Positions 17,998-26,369 of a DNA stretch of 64,000 bases are shown piece after piece; position 1 is the first letter of the stretch; the number at the start of each line of letters is the position of its first letter. Position numbers and translations under genes: made by a program. The notes below the pieces were generated by a model. That model was not told the origin of the DNA, ran no database searches, and saw only the letters and a list, made by a program, of their open reading frames with translations. The stretch is from positions 1 to 64,000 of the forward strand of contig JAGKQI010000058.1 of the NCBI GenBank assembly GCA_018806915.1, in the 5' to 3' direction. The stretch comes from Phytophthora colocasiae. Its lineage: Eukaryota > Oomycota > Peronosporomycetes > Peronosporales > Peronosporaceae.

Positions 17998-18002
17998 TAG
18001 AT

Positions 18003-18462
18003 TGTAACGGGGTTACACGTACAAGTGGTAGTACCACTTGTAACTCTAACAGTTATCCTAACTGTTAGAGATTGGAAATGGGCCTCAGACCTTGGTGTGC
18101 TGTACACACTAAAGGATACATGGGCGAACCACATTATTGGGTGGTTCGTGTGCATTTGTGCATATTATTGGTAGAAAGTAACGGATTTCTACCAATCACT
18201 GAGCAGAGTTTCTGCCAACCACACGTTGGCAGACCCTTTAGAAATAGATAACAAACAGTTTTAGGAGGTCCATAATTGGCTTATGCCAAATTCAATAACA
18301 GTTCTCATTTTACGGTATTTTGCAGTTTAATTTAGTTATATTTGATTTAATTATACTTATTTAAATAAGTATACTTAAATTAAGTCTATTCTAATTGCAC
18401 GCTTCCTCATACACGTAAGCGCACGTGTACGCCATCTAATAGGTCTAGGTAGACCCATTACA
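18003..18462 (+). repeat. Gypsy-B 5' LTR (460 bp)
   Basis: Begins TGTAACGGGG and ends CCCATTACA, flanked on the left by TAGAT. Rich in inverted repeats: TACAAGTGGTA/TACCACTTGTA near 18020-18043, AACAGTTA/TAACTGTT near 18048-18066, GAACCAC/GTGGTTC near 18125-18148, and ATTGGTAGAAA/TTTCTACCAAT near 18170-18198. Compared with the 3' LTR it has 8 extra bases (GTACAAGT) that complete one hairpin arm, loop TCC instead of GGA in the next hairpin, and one T/C difference. Confidence 0.97.
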
Positions 18463-18464
18463 CC

Positions 18465-18482
18465 TGGTAGCACTTTGTAGTC
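18465..18482 (+). other. Gypsy-B primer binding site
   Basis: TGGTAGCACTTTGTAGTC, two bases after the 5' LTR. Position and TGG start fit a tRNA 3'-end complement; the tRNA species was not identified. Confidence 0.6.
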
Positions 18483-18511
18483 CGTCCCACGACCGACTGC
18501 TGTTCGTTCGT

Positions 18512-19498
18512 ATGGAGTCATACGAACGCGGGGTCGAGAACTCCCCAATGGATCAGGGATCCACTGGGACCCCACACATGTCCGTGACGCGCACGGACTG
18601 TGCCCACCTGTCGGACCCAGAGTGGGAAGCTCTCCAAAGACTTTCACAAGTCATTGGAGAGGCGGCGGTAGCGACGATACTTCGTACGCTATCGCCGACA
18701 GAGCAACACGGTGTTGCTCTGGGGTACATTGTTAAGGAGCAACGAGATGTTGCTGCCTCGGTGGCTTCCCCGAAGCCACGCGTGGAGTCGTTGAAACTCC
18801 ACGTGAGTACCTACACGGGGAAGGAGGACGAGACCCTCCTTCGTTGGCTTGTCGAACTTGACACAGCCGTTGCGGCCCGACGTATCGTCGATCCGATGTC
18901 GAAGGTCGCGTTCGCCATGTCATGTCTTGGCGGACGTGCGAGGAGTTGGGCCTATGGGCGCCGACTCTCGGATCCTACGTGCTTCGGCACGTACGAGGTG
19001 TTCAAAGAGGAGCTCAAGCTTGCGTTTGAGCCCCCGAAGAACGAGTTCAGATCGAGAGCGGAGTTTCTCGATCTGCAGCAGGGCAAGGATGATGTTCACA
19101 CCTTTGCCCAGCGTGCTCGATACTTGGTATCGAACATAGTGGCTAACCCGATCGACGAGGCGACCAAGGTCGTCACGTTCATGAAGGGACTAAGAGATGG
19201 TCCCGTCAAAACATATCTCTTCCGAGAGTATCCGAATACTCTCGAAGAGGCGATCAGCCTTGCGATGCAAGAGGAGTTTAGCCGACGTCAAGCTAAACTC
19301 CATGCGAACGCGCCGAAGCCGGCGCGTCCTGTTGTGAAGACGGGAGGTCCGGAACCTATGGACCTCTCGAGTGCTACGACTGCTGGTCAACAGCAGCGTA
19401 GGAACAGCAAGGTTCGATGTTACAAGTGTAGTAACATCGGTCACTATGCACGCGAGTGCACAGTGGGCGGGCGTTCAAAAAACGCCAAGGACCAGTAG
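18512..19498 (+). CDS. gag: Gypsy-B Gag
   Basis: 328 residues, intact. Residues ~95-240 form a retrotransposon capsid domain (YTGKEDETLLRWLVELD, CLGGRARSWAYGRR, FAQRARYLVSN). The C-terminus carries one CCHC knuckle, CYKCSNIGHYAREC. The gene overlaps pol by 43 nt in the -1 frame and contains the shift site at 19477-19483. The coding sequence is a chain of inverted repeats, e.g. GAGCAACAC/GTGTTGCTC (18701-18719) and CGTGGAGT/ACTCCACG (18781-18803), so synonymous positions, and probably some amino acids, appear to serve base pairing as well as coding. The ATG at 18512 is about 30 bp downstream of the PBS, which supports it. Confidence 0.93.
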   Translation: MESYERGVENSPMDQGSTGTPHMSVTRTDCAHLSDPEWEALQRLSQVIGEAAVATILRTLSPTEQHGVALGYIVKEQRDVAASVASPKPRVESLKLHVSTYTGKEDETLLRWLVELDTAVAARRIVDPMSKVAFAMSCLGGRARSWAYGRRLSDPTCFGTYEVFKEELKLAFEPPKNEFRSRAEFLDLQQGKDDVHTFAQRARYLVSNIVANPIDEATKVVTFMKGLRDGPVKTYLFREYPNTLEEAISLAMQEEFSRRQAKLHANAPKPARPVVKTGGPEPMDLSSATTAGQQQRRNSKVRCYKCSNIGHYARECTVGGRSKNAKDQ

Positions 19499-19518
19499 GC
19501 GCGGGACGTCCTACTGGT
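19477..19518 (+). promoter_or_regulatory. Programmed -1 ribosomal frameshift signal, gag to pol
   Basis: The slippery heptamer A AAA AAC at 19477-19483 is in the gag phase (codons AAA, AAC). A 7-nt spacer (19484-19490) is followed by the hairpin ACCAGTAGG (19491-19499) / CCTACTGGT (19510-19518) with a 10-nt loop. Gag is in frame 2 and pol in frame 1, which is exactly a -1 shift, and gag stops 15 nt after the heptamer. Heptamer, spacer and stem all fit the standard rule. Hairpins are so common in this element that the stem alone means little; the in-phase heptamer is the strong part. Confidence 0.85.
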
Positions 19519-20327
19519 GATGCAGTCTCGCGTGTCGAGCTTGGACACGCGACGATGAGGACTGCTGCCCCCAGCGAGAAAGTTTCTCGCTGTAAGCTGC
19601 AAGATGACAAGCCAAACCTTGTCATCCTGAACGTGATGTCGAAGAGAGTGAACTCTCTTCGTGCCCTAGTGGACTCGGGCGCGTCGAACAACTTTGTTCG
19701 ACAGGGAAGTCTTCGAAGGCTTGACTTCGAAGAGGCCGACACGCCTCGCAGCGTGTTGGAGGTGCGGTTGGCAACAGGTGCCACCGTAAGGAGTGAGAAG
19801 CGCGTGGTCCGTGTGCGCTTCTCTTACAAACGAAGGACGTTTGTAGAAGACCTTATCGTCTTGGATCTAGACGACAAGTTCGACTTGGTATTAGGCATGC
19901 CGTGGCTTGCACGGCATGGCCCGGTGATCAACTGGGAGAAGCGTACGCTCGTACGCTTCAACAACACACGCGCGACAGAGAGCGATGGCCCTGTCAGTGC
20001 TGCACATGCACCGGCCGGTGCATGTAATCCCCCAGTTGAGGCAGCAGCGTCCGCCGCTGCCTCCGATCGCCGCCGGCGACCGCCAGCGACTCAGGGAGTC
20101 GTTGGGAGAAAATGTGTGTCGACTCAGAAATCTGAGCCGAAGGGTCGCGGTCACATGAGTGATGGTCAGGTGAATGTGAATCACCTGACGCATAAACATC
20201 TGAATGATGTTTGTCACATGAGTGATGGTCAGGTGAATCGCATTCACCTGAGAGAAGGTAAAATACCGGTATTACCGGTATCCTTGGAGGTACTTCAAGC
20301 CCCAAAGGGTCGCGCCGACGACGTCGC

Positions 20328-20662
20328 GTCAACTCTGGGAGTTGACGAAGCAAATAATATTCGGGGAACCGAAAGACGTGCGTCAGCTCTGAGAGCTGAC
20401 GCCACTGGCGCTTCGCTGCTAGTTCCGGGGACTAGCGATCGGTCATCAGCTCCGGGAGCTGATGAGACGTGTATAGGCGAACAGTCGCTGCTAGTTCCGG
20501 GAACTAGCGATCGTACATCCGCTCTGGGAACGGATGATATGTGTACAAGCGAACACTCGCTAGCTCAGGAAGCTAGCGAGAGCACGTCGACTCCGGGAGT
20601 CGACGATGCGGTTGCTTCATCCGCTCCGGAAGCGGATGGAGGCGCAGCGGTTCAGGGAACCG
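20328..20662 (+). repeat. Block of hairpins with constant GG loop and different stems
   Basis: Inside the PR-RT spacer of pol. GTCAACTC-TGG-GAGTTGAC (20328-20346), an 11-bp pair at 20380-20402, GCTAGT/ACTAGC (20418-20436), TCATCAGCTC-CGG-GAGCTGATGA (20443-20465), GCTAGTTC-CGG-GAACTAGC (20490-20508), CTCGCTAGCT/AGCTAGCGAG (20556-20580), CGTCGACTC-CGG-GAGTCGACG (20585-20605), CATCCGCT/AGCGGATG (20618-20638), CGGTTC-AGG-GAACCG (20648-20662). The loop stays NGG-like while stems differ but still pair. The translated units are loose repeats of the type SAPGADE, SALGTDD, STPGVDD. Confidence 0.9.
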
Positions 20663-23600
20663 ACTGCGCGGCAGGAGGTGCTGGCGGTTGCAAACGCCCA
20701 GCACCCGAACAACCTGCGTGCTCACGTGCAGCAGCGCTGCACGCGATGAGCGGCACTCAAGCCGGGCTTGATAGTGCGAGTCAGCGGAAGGAATCCGCTG
20801 ACGATTGCGATAACGTCCCGTCCAAGGTGCGATGCCTTGGACGTGGAGCACCTGGAGCCGGGCTCCACGGTAGACCTTCGCGGCGCAAGCTCAGGGAGCT
20901 GCGCGAGTCTCAGTCCGGGACTGAGACGGGTGTATCTGCAGTGCAGACACCGAGTGTCGAGACGTTGAACGTCTTGACACGTACTGGTACTGGGTTACAG
21001 TACCAGAGGATGCGGTTGGAGAATCCGCCGACGAGTGCGTCGGCGTTGACCGCACTTCCAACGATGAGTTGGAAGCGCTTCGCGCGAGACTTGTACGATG
21101 GACGCATCGAACAAATTTGCATTCTCTCGGATATCGAGAGAGTGGAGCGCGAGGCCGAGGAGCTGAAGCAGCTCGTCGTCGATGGGATCACTGAGGGTGA
21201 TAACTCCCTCAGTGCGAAGACTAAGAAGCAGCGCTTCGAGGAGCAGAGTTGGGACTCGTTGAGGTATAGTCCCTACTACGAAGTTCTGCGGGAGTACAAG
21301 GATGTACTCCCGGACGAGATTCCTTCGGAGCTTCCGAAGGACAAGGGCGTACAGCACGAGATTGATCTCGTGCCGGGCACGAAGTACTGTGTTACACGGC
21401 AGTGGCCACTGCCGCGTGAACAAGTTCAAGCGATCGACGACTTCTTTGAAAGTCGTCGTCTTGCAGGTCAAGTGCGGGAATCGAAGTCCCCGCACAGTGC
21501 CCCAACGTTCTGTGTTAAGAAACCACAGGGCGGCTGGCGCATCGTTCATGCGTATAACAAGTTGAACGATGCGATGATACCGGCGCAGACGCCGATACCG
21601 CGAAAAGATGTTATCATCGATTCGATGGCCTTGAGCACTATCTTCAGTGTTCTAGATCTGCGTGATGAATTCTACCAAATCCTCATGCGTGAGAGGGACA
21701 TCCCTCTCACAGCGGTAAGCACTCCAAGCGGTATGCTTTGGGAGTGGCTCGTCATGCCACAGGGGCTTAAGAACGCCCCTGCGACGTTCAATAGATGCGT
21801 GACACATCTATTGCGCTCGGTGCGCGACTTCGCACCGAGCTACTTCGACGACGTGTTCGTCCACAGTCGGGCTGTGAACGGGAAGACGGATATTGAGATG
21901 CACAAGGTGCATCTCCGGAAGCTGCTAGAGCTTATGAGGAAACATAAGCTCTATGCGAACCTGAAGAAGTGTATCTTCGGGGCGAGCGAGATACCCGTGC
22001 TGGGGTGTCTCGTGGGGAAAGACGGCGTGCGCCCTGACCCAGAGAAGGTCAGAGTGATCAATGAATGGCCCACGCCATCCAATGTGAAGGAACTGAGGCA
22101 GTTCCTTAGGCTTGCCACGTACTTGTGCAAGTACGTGGAGAACTATGCGGGCAAGATTCGCCCGTTGTCACAGCTTCTTAAGAAAGAAGCTGAGTGGATT
22201 TGGACGACCGAGTGCGAGGAGGCATTCGGTGCAGTCAAGCAGGGCTTGACTGAAGCGCCGATCTTGGCCGTGGCGGACCAAGATCGTCCATTCCACGTAG
22301 TGTGCGATGCATCCGACTTTGCAATCGGATGTGCATTGATGCAACACGATCACGAAGGGCGTGATCGTGTAGTCTACTATCAATCGCGTCAGCTGAAGCC
22401 AGCTGAGCGTAACTATCCCGTACATGACAAGTAGCTCCTTGCCATGAAGTATGCACTCGCAAAGTTCCGAGTGTATCTACTTGGGAGTAGACCGTTCGTG
22501 GTCTATACAGACCACGCATCATTGCGTACGGCGATTAAGTCGCCGCACATCTCGCAACGTATGGCGAGGTGGTTGTCCTTCTTCGCGGAGTACAACTTCC
22601 GGGTGGAGTACAAACCCGGAAGACTCAACGTAGTGGCCGACGCGTTATCGCGTCGACCTGAATATGCGGAGACGGTCGACGCCAACGCAGTTGGCGTCGT
22701 GAGGACAAGTGTGCCGTCGCCAACGTTGATTGACGACGTGAAGAACGCGTATGCAAGGGATGCAGACGCGAAGGGGCTGCTGGAGTTCCTCGCAGCACCT
22801 TCCGACGTGGCACGTCGGAAGCTAACCCTCATTTTCGAGCTCGTGTAGACCGCTATGGAGTGGGGGCATCCGGGTCGTGAGAAGACATACACCCTTCTCA
22901 CGCGTGACTTCTACTGGCACCACCAGTACAAGTGGGTTCGCAAGTACGTACGTGCTTGCGAGGTTTGTCAACGCGTGAAGCCTGCGCAGTTCTCGCAGGC
23001 TCCTCTTCAATCACTACCGACTCCGTCGGAGTGTTGGCAGTCCATGTCCATGGACTTTGTCTTCGGTCTTCCGCCTGACAGCAAGAGGAGGACGGGCATC
23101 GTTGTCTTTGTGGACCGATTCAGCAAGATGGTTCATCTTGCTGCCGTCCCGGCTACTGTTACAGCCGCGCAGACTGCGCGACTGTTTGTTGACATGGTGT
23201 TCAAACACCATGGCATGCCGCTCGACATTGTGTCGGACCGTGATCCACGCTTCACAGCGCGGCTCTGGCAAGAAGTGTTTACACTTCTTGGTTCACAGTT
23301 ATCAATGTCGACTGCGGATCATCCGCAGACGGACGGACAGACCGAACGTGTCAACCGTGTACTGGGTGACACGTTGAAGAGCTACGCTCACTCGTTCCCG
23401 CACTGGAGCGAGTGCTTGCCGATGGCAGAGTTTGCCATCAACAACTCGGCGCATGCCTCGACAGGGCATACACCGTTCTACGTGAATGCCATGAGGCATC
23501 CACGATTGCCGAGCATGCTCGGTGGGGTAGTTTCCTCCTTAAGTGGGGGAGGATCTACGGTTGCGTCCGAACAACCGCAGAATGCAACTGATAGCAGCAC

Positions 23601-24165
23601 ACTATCAGCTGCGGTGACGCGTTCGACGTCTCGTTCTAGCAGGAACGAGCGCGCGATGTCTGTGCCGGGCACAGACATGAGAGATGATAGCAAGCAGGCA
23701 GGGCCTGCTGCTGACAAGGGCGACAAGCTGAAAGGATTCAGCTCGGGTGCGCTAGACTTTGTCCAGCGAAGACAAGCCGTCATACGGTTTGTCCAGGATG
23801 CTATCGCAGCTTCTGTCGATCGACAGAAGCTGAACGCTGATAATGTTGGTAGGGGCAACATAAATGAATTCAAATTGGGTTCATTGGTTTTGTTAGCTAC
23901 GCAAAACCTACCTAAACATGCAGTGTCTGATTTTGGAGCAAGCAAGCTTGCTCCAAGATTCATTGGGCCGTTCAAAGTACTTGAACGGCACGGTAACGCG
24001 TACCGGCTGGACATACCGTCCAGCATGAGGCTCCACCCGACCTTCTACGTCGGGCGGTTGAAGCCGTACGTGCAGCACGGACTACCTAGGGTTGGTAGTC
24101 CGACTGAGGAGTGCGAGAGGCCTGGAAGGCCTTCTCGTGACCGTCGACACGGTCGACCAACCGGC

Positions 24166-25632
24166 TCACTCTCGTCCCAAGACCGGACGAGAGGTTCGAG
24201 GCAGTCTGAGCTGCCTCACAGACCTAGCACGGAGGACACGAACCTCCTGCTTCAGAGCCGCTATCTCAGCGCTCTGTGTCTGCTCCAGCGCAGCAACTCG
24301 ATCGTGCAGGGCACGATCGTCATGGTCATAGCGGTGACCATACGGAGGGAGTGTTCCCGCCCCCTCCGCCGCCGTTGCGCGACGCGCGTGGAGCGATCCG
24401 CTGGATTGTTGAGCGGATTGTGGCTCATAAGAGAACGAACTCTCAAGGGGTTCGTTTTCGTATTCGTTGGAGAGGATTTCCTCCCCATCGAGATACATGG
24501 GAGCCGCGGAACGTCCTGATGGAGGACGTTCCGGATATGGTGAGGGCGTACGAAGCCCACCATAACTTGCAGGGTTAAACCCTGCACGAGGAGTGCTGCG
24601 GTCAGCCACAGCACTCGGAGCTTCGCGTGGCACAATACGATCACGGAGTTCCTTGATGTGATCGGGTACACGGACGACCGTGTACCCCAGGAGATCACTT
24701 TCGGTGAGGCGTGTTGCCAAGGGTGAGCAACACGGGCAGGGTGGGCCAAAGGGAACGGCACATGGGATCCCCGCTTCCATGGACTGATCATGGAGGCGTT
24801 CACACTTACCACGTGTAGTGTAAGTGTAGTAGCGATCGCGAGCCGCAGCAACGCGATCGCGATATGCCTTCGGGTCTTTGTTGAAGTTCTCAACAAAGGC
24901 GTTTCACGACTGACAAAGTGCCTGCCACTCTGGCACTTTGCTCTTGCGCGAAGTCTTCTTCGCTGCATAGTATCGGAGCTCGTGGAAGAGCCCGATATAG
25001 TAGTCGCGTCTTTGAGTCTCGGACTCAAAGACAACCTTAGCGGCGACGTCGTCGTCGTTGATACTGTTGCATGAGTACAACAGTATCGGGTTCGGTGGTG
25101 AACTAGCACCGAACCGGTCATGGATTTCTGCCTCAGTAGGCATCCATGGTGTGCGCACTGGCGGATCAGTGCGCGGGGCAGTGAGCGCCCTCGACATGGG
25201 GGACGCTTCATCATCACTGCGCGGACGCTTCGAGCTTGAAGCGTCCGAGGCCTCATCACGAGGTCGTCGAGATCCCACGGGTGGGTCTGACGTGTCTTCA
25301 GACGAAGACACGGGAGCGGGAGCCTTGACATCAACCTCCCCCTCCTCGACATCCTCCTCGTAGTCGAGGATGTCTTCGTAGTCCTCTCCAAAGAGTTCTT
25401 TGAGAGGGACAGCAGGATTCTTAATCTCTGCTAGAGAAGAAGACTTCTTCTTCTTCTCATGCTTCTCCTTATGGAGAGCATGGTACTTGGTGACAGAGAT
25501 CTTCTCTGTCGGACCGCTGGAAGCAGCAGTGCTAGTGGGCACTGCTGAGGTCGTTGTTCCTACTGCAGAGGCAGCAGGTGAGGCTTGCGCGTCCGCAGAA
25601 GCGGACGGAGACGTGGGCGTTGGCGAGTCCAT
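24166..25632 (-). pseudogene. Convergent antisense ORF of Gypsy-B (function unknown)
   Basis: Starts at ATG 25632, about 100 bp inside the 3' LTR, and reads back towards pol. One TGA (24904-24906) breaks an otherwise continuous frame of 489 codons. Visible parts: Ser/Ala/Thr-rich N-terminus, a KHEKKKK basic patch, an acidic run (EDYEDILDYEEDVEEGEVD), a Ser/Arg/Asp-rich middle with an SKRPRSDDE nuclear-signal-like word, a globular YYIGLFHELRYYAAKK segment, a Cys cluster (CAVPFGPPCPCC) beyond the stop, and a C-terminal coiled coil (DRVAALEQTQSAEIAALKQE). No domain was recognised. It overlaps the chromodomain end of pol on the other strand. Position and orientation match the ORF at 977-3311 in Gypsy-A; I see no convincing sequence match between the two. 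Confidence 0.65.
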
Positions 25633-25720
25633 TGCGAAATGAACTCGGATTTCTCTTGGGAACTTGACGGTCTTGTCAAGTTCTGTTGATTGACGTATCG
25701 AGACCGATACGTCGAATCTT

Positions 25721-25733
25721 AACGGGGGGATGG
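25721..25733 (+). other. Gypsy-B polypurine tract
   Basis: AACGGGGGGATGG immediately precedes the 3' LTR start at 25734. A purine-rich stretch here is the expected plus-strand primer site. Confidence 0.7.
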
Positions 25734-26185
25734 TGTAACGGGGTTACACGGTAGTACCACTTGTAACTCTAACAGTTAGGATAACTGTTAGAGATTGGAA
25801 ATGGGCCTCAGACCTTGGTGTGCTGTACACACCAAAGGATACATGGGCGAACCACATTATTGGGTGGTTCGTGTGCATTTGTGCATATTATTGGTAGAAA
25901 GTAACGGATTTCTACCAATCACTGAGCAGAGTTTCTGCCAACCACACGTTGGCAGACCCTTTAGAAATAGATAACAAACAGTTTTAGGAGGTCCATAATT
26001 GGCTTATGCCAAATTCAATAACAGTTCTCATTTTACGGTATTTTGCAGTTTAATTTAGTTATATTTGATTTAATTATACTTATTTAAATAAGTATACTTA
26101 AATTAAGTCTATTCTAATTGCACGCTTCCTCATACACGTAAGCGCACGTGTACGCCATCTAATAGGTCTAGGTAGACCCATTACA
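25734..26185 (+). repeat. Gypsy-B 3' LTR (452 bp)
   Basis: TGTAACGGGG to CCCATTACA, followed by the TAGAT duplication. Nearly identical to the 5' LTR; differences are listed there. The hairpin with loop GGA here and loop TCC in the 5' LTR has identical arms in both. Confidence 0.97.
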
Positions 26186-26369
26186 TAGATGATCACGTTC
26201 AAGTAGCGTAGCTTGTTCTTGCGGCTGACCCTCTGTGTGTCACGATATACTACCTCTGTGTGGAAAATGATGAGCATTTCCAATTGTATTACATCCTGTT
26301 CAGAATCTATACCTTGCAAATCTGATCATATTTTGAATCTCCCGCCCAATCTTCCCGCTGGAGCGCCAA

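What the first reader, a model, noticed from the sequence alone, without database searches (positions are those of the whole stretch)
18003..26185. A whole LTR retrotransposon built as a chain of short inverted repeats
Seen directly: across Gypsy-B, perfect inverted repeats follow one another every 20-35 bp, in LTRs, gag, pol and the antisense ORF. Examples: GAGCAACAC/GTGTTGCTC 18701-18719; CGTGGAGT/ACTCCACG 18781-18803; GCTCGGTGCG/CGCACCGAGC near 21815-21840; CGTGGTCT/AGACCACG 22497-22516; CGTGAGAAG/CTTCTCACG 22876-22902; GTCTTTGAGTC/GACTCAAAGAC 25008-25032; CGGACGCTTC/GAAGCGTCCG 25222-25247. They run through conserved RT and integrase motifs, so codon choice must be bent to pairing. I know of no described element of this kind. 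Possible meanings: ordered genomic RNA for packaging, protection from or feeding of RNA silencing, or a by-product of strand switching in reverse transcription.
Basis: seen in the sequence. Interest (0 to 1): 0.93.

Follow-up and report, generated by a model that had tools for sequence, protein, structure and literature searches.

The report
Retrotransposon made of chained short hairpins
A jumping gene in what is probably a Phytophthora genome carries small perfect hairpins along its whole length, through its genes as well as its ends, and its copies show that evolution has kept them, perhaps to keep its RNA folded, as some RNA viruses do.

Summary
Perfect inverted repeats (arm >=7, loop <=12) occur at 17.8/kb in 18003-26185, against 0.66/kb in shuffles and 0.6-1.4/kb in the rest of the window. 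Shuffles that keep protein and dinucleotides give 4.7 (highest of 20: 9) where pol has 58. Stacked with 29 other copies, 200 hairpins cover 54% of the element. Folding-energy excess is 35% on the + strand and 43% on the - strand.

Related families (RT 51-70% identical) have 5-9/kb, distant Gypsies 0-0.9. At third codon positions, variants shared among copies are five times rarer in arms than outside, while single-copy mutations are not. Sister groups show compensatory changes. G-U pairs are tolerated no better than A-C, so pairing seems to matter on both strands. The element also carries a conserved antisense gene. Strand switching is not supported as the main origin.

[quoted passage not shown] Best guess for function, inferred only: shielding of sense and antisense RNA from annealing and silencing.

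The parts
18003..26185 (+). Whole element (Ty3/Gypsy type) built as a chain of perfect inverted repeats
   Evidence: 17.84 IR/kb vs 0.66 in shuffles; 200 hairpins covering 4387 of 8183 bases in the copy stack
17998..18002 (.). Target-site duplication TAGAT, left copy (right copy 26186-26190)
   Evidence: read directly
18003..18462 (+). 5' LTR, 460 bp, with hairpins at 18020-18042, 18044-18070, 18125-18148, 18167-18196, 18211-18233, 18352-18373
   Evidence: 99.1% identical to the 3' LTR over 436 bp
18512..19498 (+). gag ORF with zinc knuckle
   Evidence: Pfam PF03732, PF19259, PF00098; 13 hairpins vs 0.8 in codon shuffles
19456..22434 (+). pol ORF, first part: protease, reverse transcriptase, RNase H; hairpins run through the RT domain (21514-22008)
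   Evidence: Pfam PF08284, PF00078, PF17919; 58 hairpins vs 4.7
22849..24519 (+). pol ORF, second part: integrase (the frame is interrupted in this copy; longer open frames exist in other copies)
   Evidence: Pfam PF17921, PF00665, PF24626; 29 hairpins vs 3.0; open frames of up to 1753 aa at other copies
24166..25632 (-). Antisense gene, interrupted in this copy; 515 aa in copies L020 and L019 (start placed at the first ATG of the frame; the left end in the window is where the frame of this copy stops)
   Evidence: 463 homologues at E <= 0.001; shared variants concentrate on its third codon position
25734..26185 (+). 3' LTR, 452 bp; lacks one 8-nt hairpin arm that the 5' LTR has
25008..25032 (.). 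Example hairpin GTCTTTGAGTC tcg GACTCAAAGAC, used to count copies
   Evidence: 204 forward and 211 reverse matches with up to 3 mismatches, 0 for the reversed pattern
23121..23143 (.). Example hairpin shared by families B, C and E (integrase region)

Best explanation
SHOWN: the element is packed end to end with perfect Watson-Crick hairpins, mostly of 6-11 bp (9 bp commonest). In its protein-coding parts the arms are kept by purifying selection while the element multiplies. Over longer times it is the amount of hairpin, not the single hairpin, that persists. The constraint is the same for G-U and A-C mismatches, so pairing appears to count on both strands. The element also has a conserved antisense gene. 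INFERRED: the hairpins are a structural armour that keeps the genomic RNA, and the antisense RNA or the complementary cDNA strand, folded on itself, so that sense and antisense strands anneal poorly and few long single-stranded stretches are open to small RNAs. Stems this short should not be Dicer substrates themselves (recalled, not tested). This is the GORS principle of RNA viruses carried further and applied to both strands. My confidence that the hairpin chain is real and selected is about 0.95; the figure below is for the armour mechanism.
For: Density and controls. Energy excess on both strands: 35.5% and 43.5%. Shared third-position variants 8/606 in arms vs 66/1034 outside (p 4e-7), single-copy variants 76/606 vs 127/1034; same direction in the antisense gene, 0/138 vs 12/198. 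Compensatory changes in C/D: 19 cells vs 6.3 in shuffles, 0 of 500 reach it. G-U no better tolerated than A-C. 21-nt windows cost more to open than in 3 codon shuffles on both strands: 9.3 vs 7.6-7.7 and 9.0 vs 6.9-7.1 kcal/mol. Conserved antisense gene. Small RNAs map to both strands along Gypsy elements of P. infestans (PMC3522703, passages). Structured viral RNAs escape recognition in fibroblasts (PMC3950689, abstract).
Against: No small-RNA, transcript or structure-probing data were seen. The gain in opening energy is modest, and 14.5% of 21-nt windows contain no stem base. In the LTRs arms are not depleted of shared variants but the reverse (5/266 vs 1/492), and outside the sense ORFs as a whole there is no depletion (8/759 vs 20/1456). 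In maize, structured regions of transposable elements map more small RNAs, not fewer (PMC10760457, abstract). Hairpins cover the whole element while the antisense gene covers only its 3' part. Innermost pairs that cannot form in a hairpin are complementary too often (23 of 50 and 19 of 39 vs about 25%), which armour does not explain.
Confidence: 0.38

Rival explanations
1. Compaction or packaging: the hairpins order the plus-strand genomic RNA for packaging into virus-like particles or protect it from nucleases.
For: The whole RNA is structured; retroelement RNAs are partly structured, up to 30% in Ty1 and Ty3 (PMC11381356, abstract and one section). Amount rather than position is kept.
Against: A plus-strand role should tolerate G-U more than A-C: shared transitions in arms 9/1281 vs 10/1280, interior mismatches 7 vs 12. 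Minus-strand energy excess is at least as high.
Confidence: 0.22
2. The single-stranded cDNA made during reverse transcription must be folded (protection from nucleases or editing, or strand transfer), so pairing is selected on RNA and DNA strands alike.
For: Strand symmetry; slight A-C excess on the plus strand, which is G-T on the minus strand: 12 vs 7 in the window copy, 20 vs 11 in C/D.
Against: The A-C excess is small and absent among shared variants of B (10 vs 9). No direct evidence on cDNA.
Confidence: 0.15
3. Strand switching by the reverse transcriptase writes one arm from the other, and the hairpins are its by-product.
For: Arms are perfect; loops of 0-2 nt, impossible to form, are over-represented; one private hairpin in L014 with four clustered differences could be such an event.
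Against: B differs from C equally in both arms (chi2 23.7, 34 df; vs E 11.3, 15 df). Bases inserted in B are not enriched in arms (2 of 21, 5 of 60). Of 8 sites with a hairpin absent from most copies, 5 differ by one base. Unbiased correction would let arms change in concert at the neutral rate; instead shared variants are depleted.
Confidence: 0.06
4. The hairpins feed host RNA silencing or self-limitation of copy number.
For: In maize, structured regions of transposable elements map more small RNAs (PMC10760457, abstract).
Against: Arms rarely exceed 11 bp (4 of 200). The family is abundant (about 200 sites, my reading).
Confidence: 0.06

Closest known systems
[quoted passage not shown] PMC3950689, abstract)
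   Same: Hundreds of local stem-loops along the whole genome, elevated folding energy throughout, reduced diversity at paired sites, positions and pairings poorly conserved between relatives.
   Different: A retrotransposon, not an RNA virus. Energy excess 35-43% against about 15% in SARS-CoV-2 and 23.4% in the highest coronavirus named there (their shuffling method and fragment spacing differ). Arms are perfect, without G-U, and constrained alike on both strands.
Structured RNA genomes of Ty1, Ty3 and HIV-1 (PMC11381356, abstract and one section)
   Same: LTR-element RNA with stable stems, among them in the RT region.
   Different: There a mosaic with up to 30% stable regions in Ty1 and Ty3; here a continuous chain legible in the DNA.
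Retand elements of plants, with antisense ORFs between pol and 3' LTR (PMC11963269, passages)
   Same: An antisense gene between pol and the 3' LTR.
   Different: No TRP28 or other Pfam domain reached its cut-off in the antisense protein; the passages found do not mention hairpins.
Quasipalindrome correction or template switching (recalled)
   Same: Perfect inverted repeats.
   Different: The signs of one-arm copying are missing.

Membership tests
Ty3/Gypsy LTR retrotransposon | LTRs, target duplication, gag and pol in the order protease, RT, RNase H, integrase | tested here: met
GORS | Elevated folding energy along the whole coding sequence | tested here: met
   40 fragments of 350 nt, + strand 16.9-51.7%, mean 35.5%
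GORS | Many local stem-loops, positions poorly conserved between relatives | tested here: met
   200 hairpins; 3 of 46 shared between B and C, chance 0.8
GORS | Reduced diversity at paired sites | tested here: met
   third positions in coding parts, 8/606 vs 66/1034; not seen in the LTRs
GORS | Genome of a + strand RNA virus | tested here: not met
   LTR retrotransposon
GORS | Lower recognition by the host's defence | not testable with these tools
   no functional data
Plus-strand RNA structure as such | G-U accepted in place of Watson-Crick pairs more than A-C | tested here: not met
   9/1281 vs 10/1280 shared transitions
Strand-switch product | One arm copied from the other, so differences from relatives sit in one arm | tested here: not met
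   chi2 23.7 on 34 df vs C
Dicer-type hairpin precursor | Stems of about 20 bp or more (recalled) | tested here: not met
   longest modal arm 13 bp

The most novel reading that the evidence does not exclude
A retrotransposon lineage has rewritten its whole sequence into self-complementary units of about 24 nt (mean span 23.7, sd 3.2, for arms >=8), close to small-RNA length, so that a small RNA cut from either strand, and a target site on either strand, tends to fold on itself: an anti-silencing armour selected on both strands, and part of why the most hairpin-rich family is the abundant one.
Probability: 0.25. Interest if true: 0.93.

Novelty: new variant of a known kind. Interest (0 to 1): 0.86.

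Why it matters
If true, one of the most strongly folded long coding sequences on record sits in a transposable element, and the folding is legible in DNA. Many copies, sister groups at graded density (about 18, 9, 8 and 5-6 per kb) and an antisense gene make it testable how genome-wide structure evolves, which strand it serves, and whether it protects against RNA silencing. It also warns that codon use in a transposon can be governed by pairing.

Tried and rejected
Strand switching as origin: arms equal, inserted bases not enriched in arms, few multi-base private gains. In one search the count of zero gaps in arms was true by construction, because hairpins touching gaps had been left out; one search repeats it without that filter. 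An 8-nt arm in the 5' LTR looked like a templated insertion, but both LTRs of nearly all other copies have it, so the 3' LTR of this copy has lost it. Plus-strand RNA structure alone: no G-U preference. Relatives elsewhere: viral contigs and genome contigs gave none, so no DNA of another named species was seen, only proteins. The integrase-family search in the own genome gave places but no loci and was not used further. Arm motif: only an excess of outer C-G pairs (60 C, 32 G). Left out of counts: columns with fewer than 15 letters or 12; columns where the window does not carry the commonest base; loci L001-L008, which repeat parts of longer pieces. One search ended in an error after its shuffle results were printed; the rest was redone.
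Full report
WHAT IS THERE. The element at 18003-26185 is a Ty3/Gypsy LTR retrotransposon: LTRs of 460 and 452 bp, TAGAT target duplication, gag, protease, RT, RNase H and integrase. Of the 120 listed relatives of its RT, the closest named ones are Phytophthora proteins, so the unnamed host is probably Phytophthora (inference). The pol frame of this copy is interrupted. The genome of 92.5 Mb holds many copies at about 97% identity: a 601-base query gave 40 scored of 319 candidates. A 25-nt internal hairpin pattern matches 204 times forward and 211 times reverse with up to 3 mismatches, and never when read backwards. The pattern is nearly self-complementary, so one site can count twice; about 200 sites is my reading.

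All seven examples are exact. Density is 27 times the shuffled value and ends at the element's edges. Shuffles that keep protein and dinucleotides remove it in gag, pol and integrase, while Copia and host genes lie within the range of their shuffles. The excess is confined to loops up to about 16 nt: at arms >=7, loops of 21-40 nt give 9 against 9.0 expected. In the stack of 29 other copies plus the window, 200 hairpins with arm >=6 are present in at least half of the copies that cover them and take up 53.6% of the element; modal arms of 9 bp are commonest (48), those of 12-13 bp rare (4). Density is even: 17 to 27 hairpins per kb in six regions, LTRs and antisense gene included.

A CLADE TRAIT. 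Of 30 loci from the RNase H family search, which scored 150 of 2684 candidates, 9 are copies of this family B (11.8-18.5 per kb), 8 belong to the sister groups C and D (RT 59.7-69.8% identical; 5.2-8.2 per kb), and 13 at 30-36% identity have 0-0.9 per kb. C and D are 86-90% identical in DNA. A further family E (50.6% identical to B over 524 residues, 69.7% to C over 422) has 9.0 per kb in 1,560 bases. Folding-energy excess on the + strand: B 35.5%, C 7.3%, E 10.6%, Copia 4.9%, a host gene -0.5%, a distant Gypsy -5.9%. So the trait is graded and highest in B; that it rose in the B lineage is inference, as no tree was rooted.

SELECTION. Variants seen in one copy arise mostly after insertion; variants in three or more copies arose mostly in multiplying elements (inference). 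At third codon positions where the window carries the commonest base, single-copy variants are equally common in arms (76/606) and outside (127/1034), but shared variants are 8/606 against 66/1034 (p 4e-7), and 12/165 in loops. At first and second positions 13/1196 against 46/2140 (p 0.03). With a stricter arm definition and no such filter, third positions gave 6/471 against 103/1268. Outside the sense ORFs there is no difference overall (8/759 against 20/1456). Split up, third positions of the antisense gene show it (0/138 against 12/198, p 0.002), while the LTRs show the reverse (5/266 against 1/492). In C and D, 28 hairpins (228 pairs) on 8 rows have 9 pairs and 19 cells changed on both sides; shuffles give 5.5 and 6.3, with 11 and 0 of 500 reaching the observed values; slid structures give at most 3 and 4. 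Further pair types were fewer than in all 500 shuffles (21 against 25.5). The structure was taken from these sequences, which favours it over the slid versions. Example: one hairpin reads ATCGTCGT..ACGACGAT in C, GTCGTCGT..ACGACGAC in D, GTCGTCAT..ATGACGAC in E.

TURNOVER. Hairpins sharing a centre: B and C 3 of 46 (chance 0.8), B and D 1 of 40 (0.6), B and E 1 of 20 (0.2), C and E 3 of 11 (0.2), C and D 13 of 27 (0.3). Pairs of B's arms are Watson-Crick in C in 48% of cases (26% when shifted by 40 nt), which by my estimate is no more than 68% nucleotide identity would leave. So the amount of hairpin lasts, not the single hairpin, as reported for coronavirus GORS (PMC7642675, abstract and passages).

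BOTH STRANDS. A plus-strand RNA role should tolerate G-U. Shared transitions that would make G-U are 9/1281 in arms, those that would make A-C 10/1280; elsewhere 44/2188 and 50/2442. At third positions alone 2 observed against 12.5 expected for G-U, 4 against 12.6 for A-C. Interior mismatches in long hairpins: 7 G-U and 12 A-C in the window copy, 7 and 11 in L028. In C/D, mismatch states shared by two or more rows: 11 G-U, 20 A-C. Energy excess is at least as high on the minus strand of B. Hence pairing counts on both strands, or is judged by exact complementarity.

THE ANTISENSE GENE. In 7 of 14 copies that span a 1,540-base stretch at the 3' end, and in 3 of 4 that span part of it, one antisense frame has no stop; in L020 and L019 it is an ORF of 515 aa. 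Shared variants in 24520-25391 fall 20, 5 and 2 on the three phases, the 20 on that frame's third position. Homologues: 463 at E <= 0.001 among 7,993 candidates scored; the listed ones that carry a species name are Phytophthora as far as I read the list. No Pfam match reaches its cut-off. Family C has an antisense ORF of 340 aa in a like place, with weak similarity (24% over 92 aa, E 4e-4 for the single comparison). So the element is probably transcribed in both directions (inference).

HOW IT MAY WORK. The demand is for folding on both strands, nearly everywhere, without fixed positions or a motif apart from a bias to an outer C-G pair (60 C to 32 G). That fits a shield better than a signal. 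Shown: 21-nt windows cost more to open than in three codon shuffles, on both strands (9.3 against 7.6-7.7; 9.0 against 6.9-7.1 kcal/mol); 14.5% of 21-nt windows hold no stem base. Known: small RNAs map to both strands along Gypsy elements of P. infestans (PMC3522703, passages), and structured viral RNAs evade recognition in fibroblasts (PMC3950689, abstract). Inferred: the hairpins hinder sense-antisense annealing and small-RNA access. Unexplained: complementarity of innermost pairs that cannot form in a hairpin (23 of 50 and 19 of 39 against about 25%, p 0.002 and 0.003).

LITERATURE. Ten searches of an open-access library listed no LTR element built this way; two searches listed nothing at all. 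Subscription papers and preprints are not covered. Six papers were opened, as abstracts, passages or one section: PMC11381356, PMC3522703, PMC11963269, PMC7642675, PMC3950689, PMC10760457.

Noticed in passing
window 24166-25632 (-); L020:6188-7735 (-): A conserved antisense gene (515 aa in intact copies) between integrase and the 3' LTR, widespread among Phytophthora proteins of unknown function.
   Followed up: partly
G000 contig C9, 2217631-2241119: LTR-hairpin matches at seven places spaced about 3.9 kb on one strand, as if an LTR-bearing unit were tandemly repeated; on C17 three matches are spaced about 16.7 kb.
   Followed up: no
window 25734-25760 and 18020-18042: The 3' LTR lacks one arm of the LTR-head hairpin that the 5' LTR and nearly all other copies have.
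   Followed up: partly
window 21354-21376, 24670-24685: Single copies have deletions that remove a whole hairpin or most of one, as if hairpins provoked deletion.
   Followed up: no
L014, window coordinates 20607-20625: A hairpin present in this copy only, with four clustered differences from the window, a candidate for a strand-switch event.
   Followed up: partly
hairpins of 18003-26185: Innermost pairs too close to form are complementary in about half of the small-loop hairpins, and the outermost pair is more often C-G than G-C; neither is explained.
   Followed up: partly
L060:3-566 (-): An open frame with a P-loop-like motif (recalled motif) near the far end of the piece beside a family C copy.
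   Followed up: no
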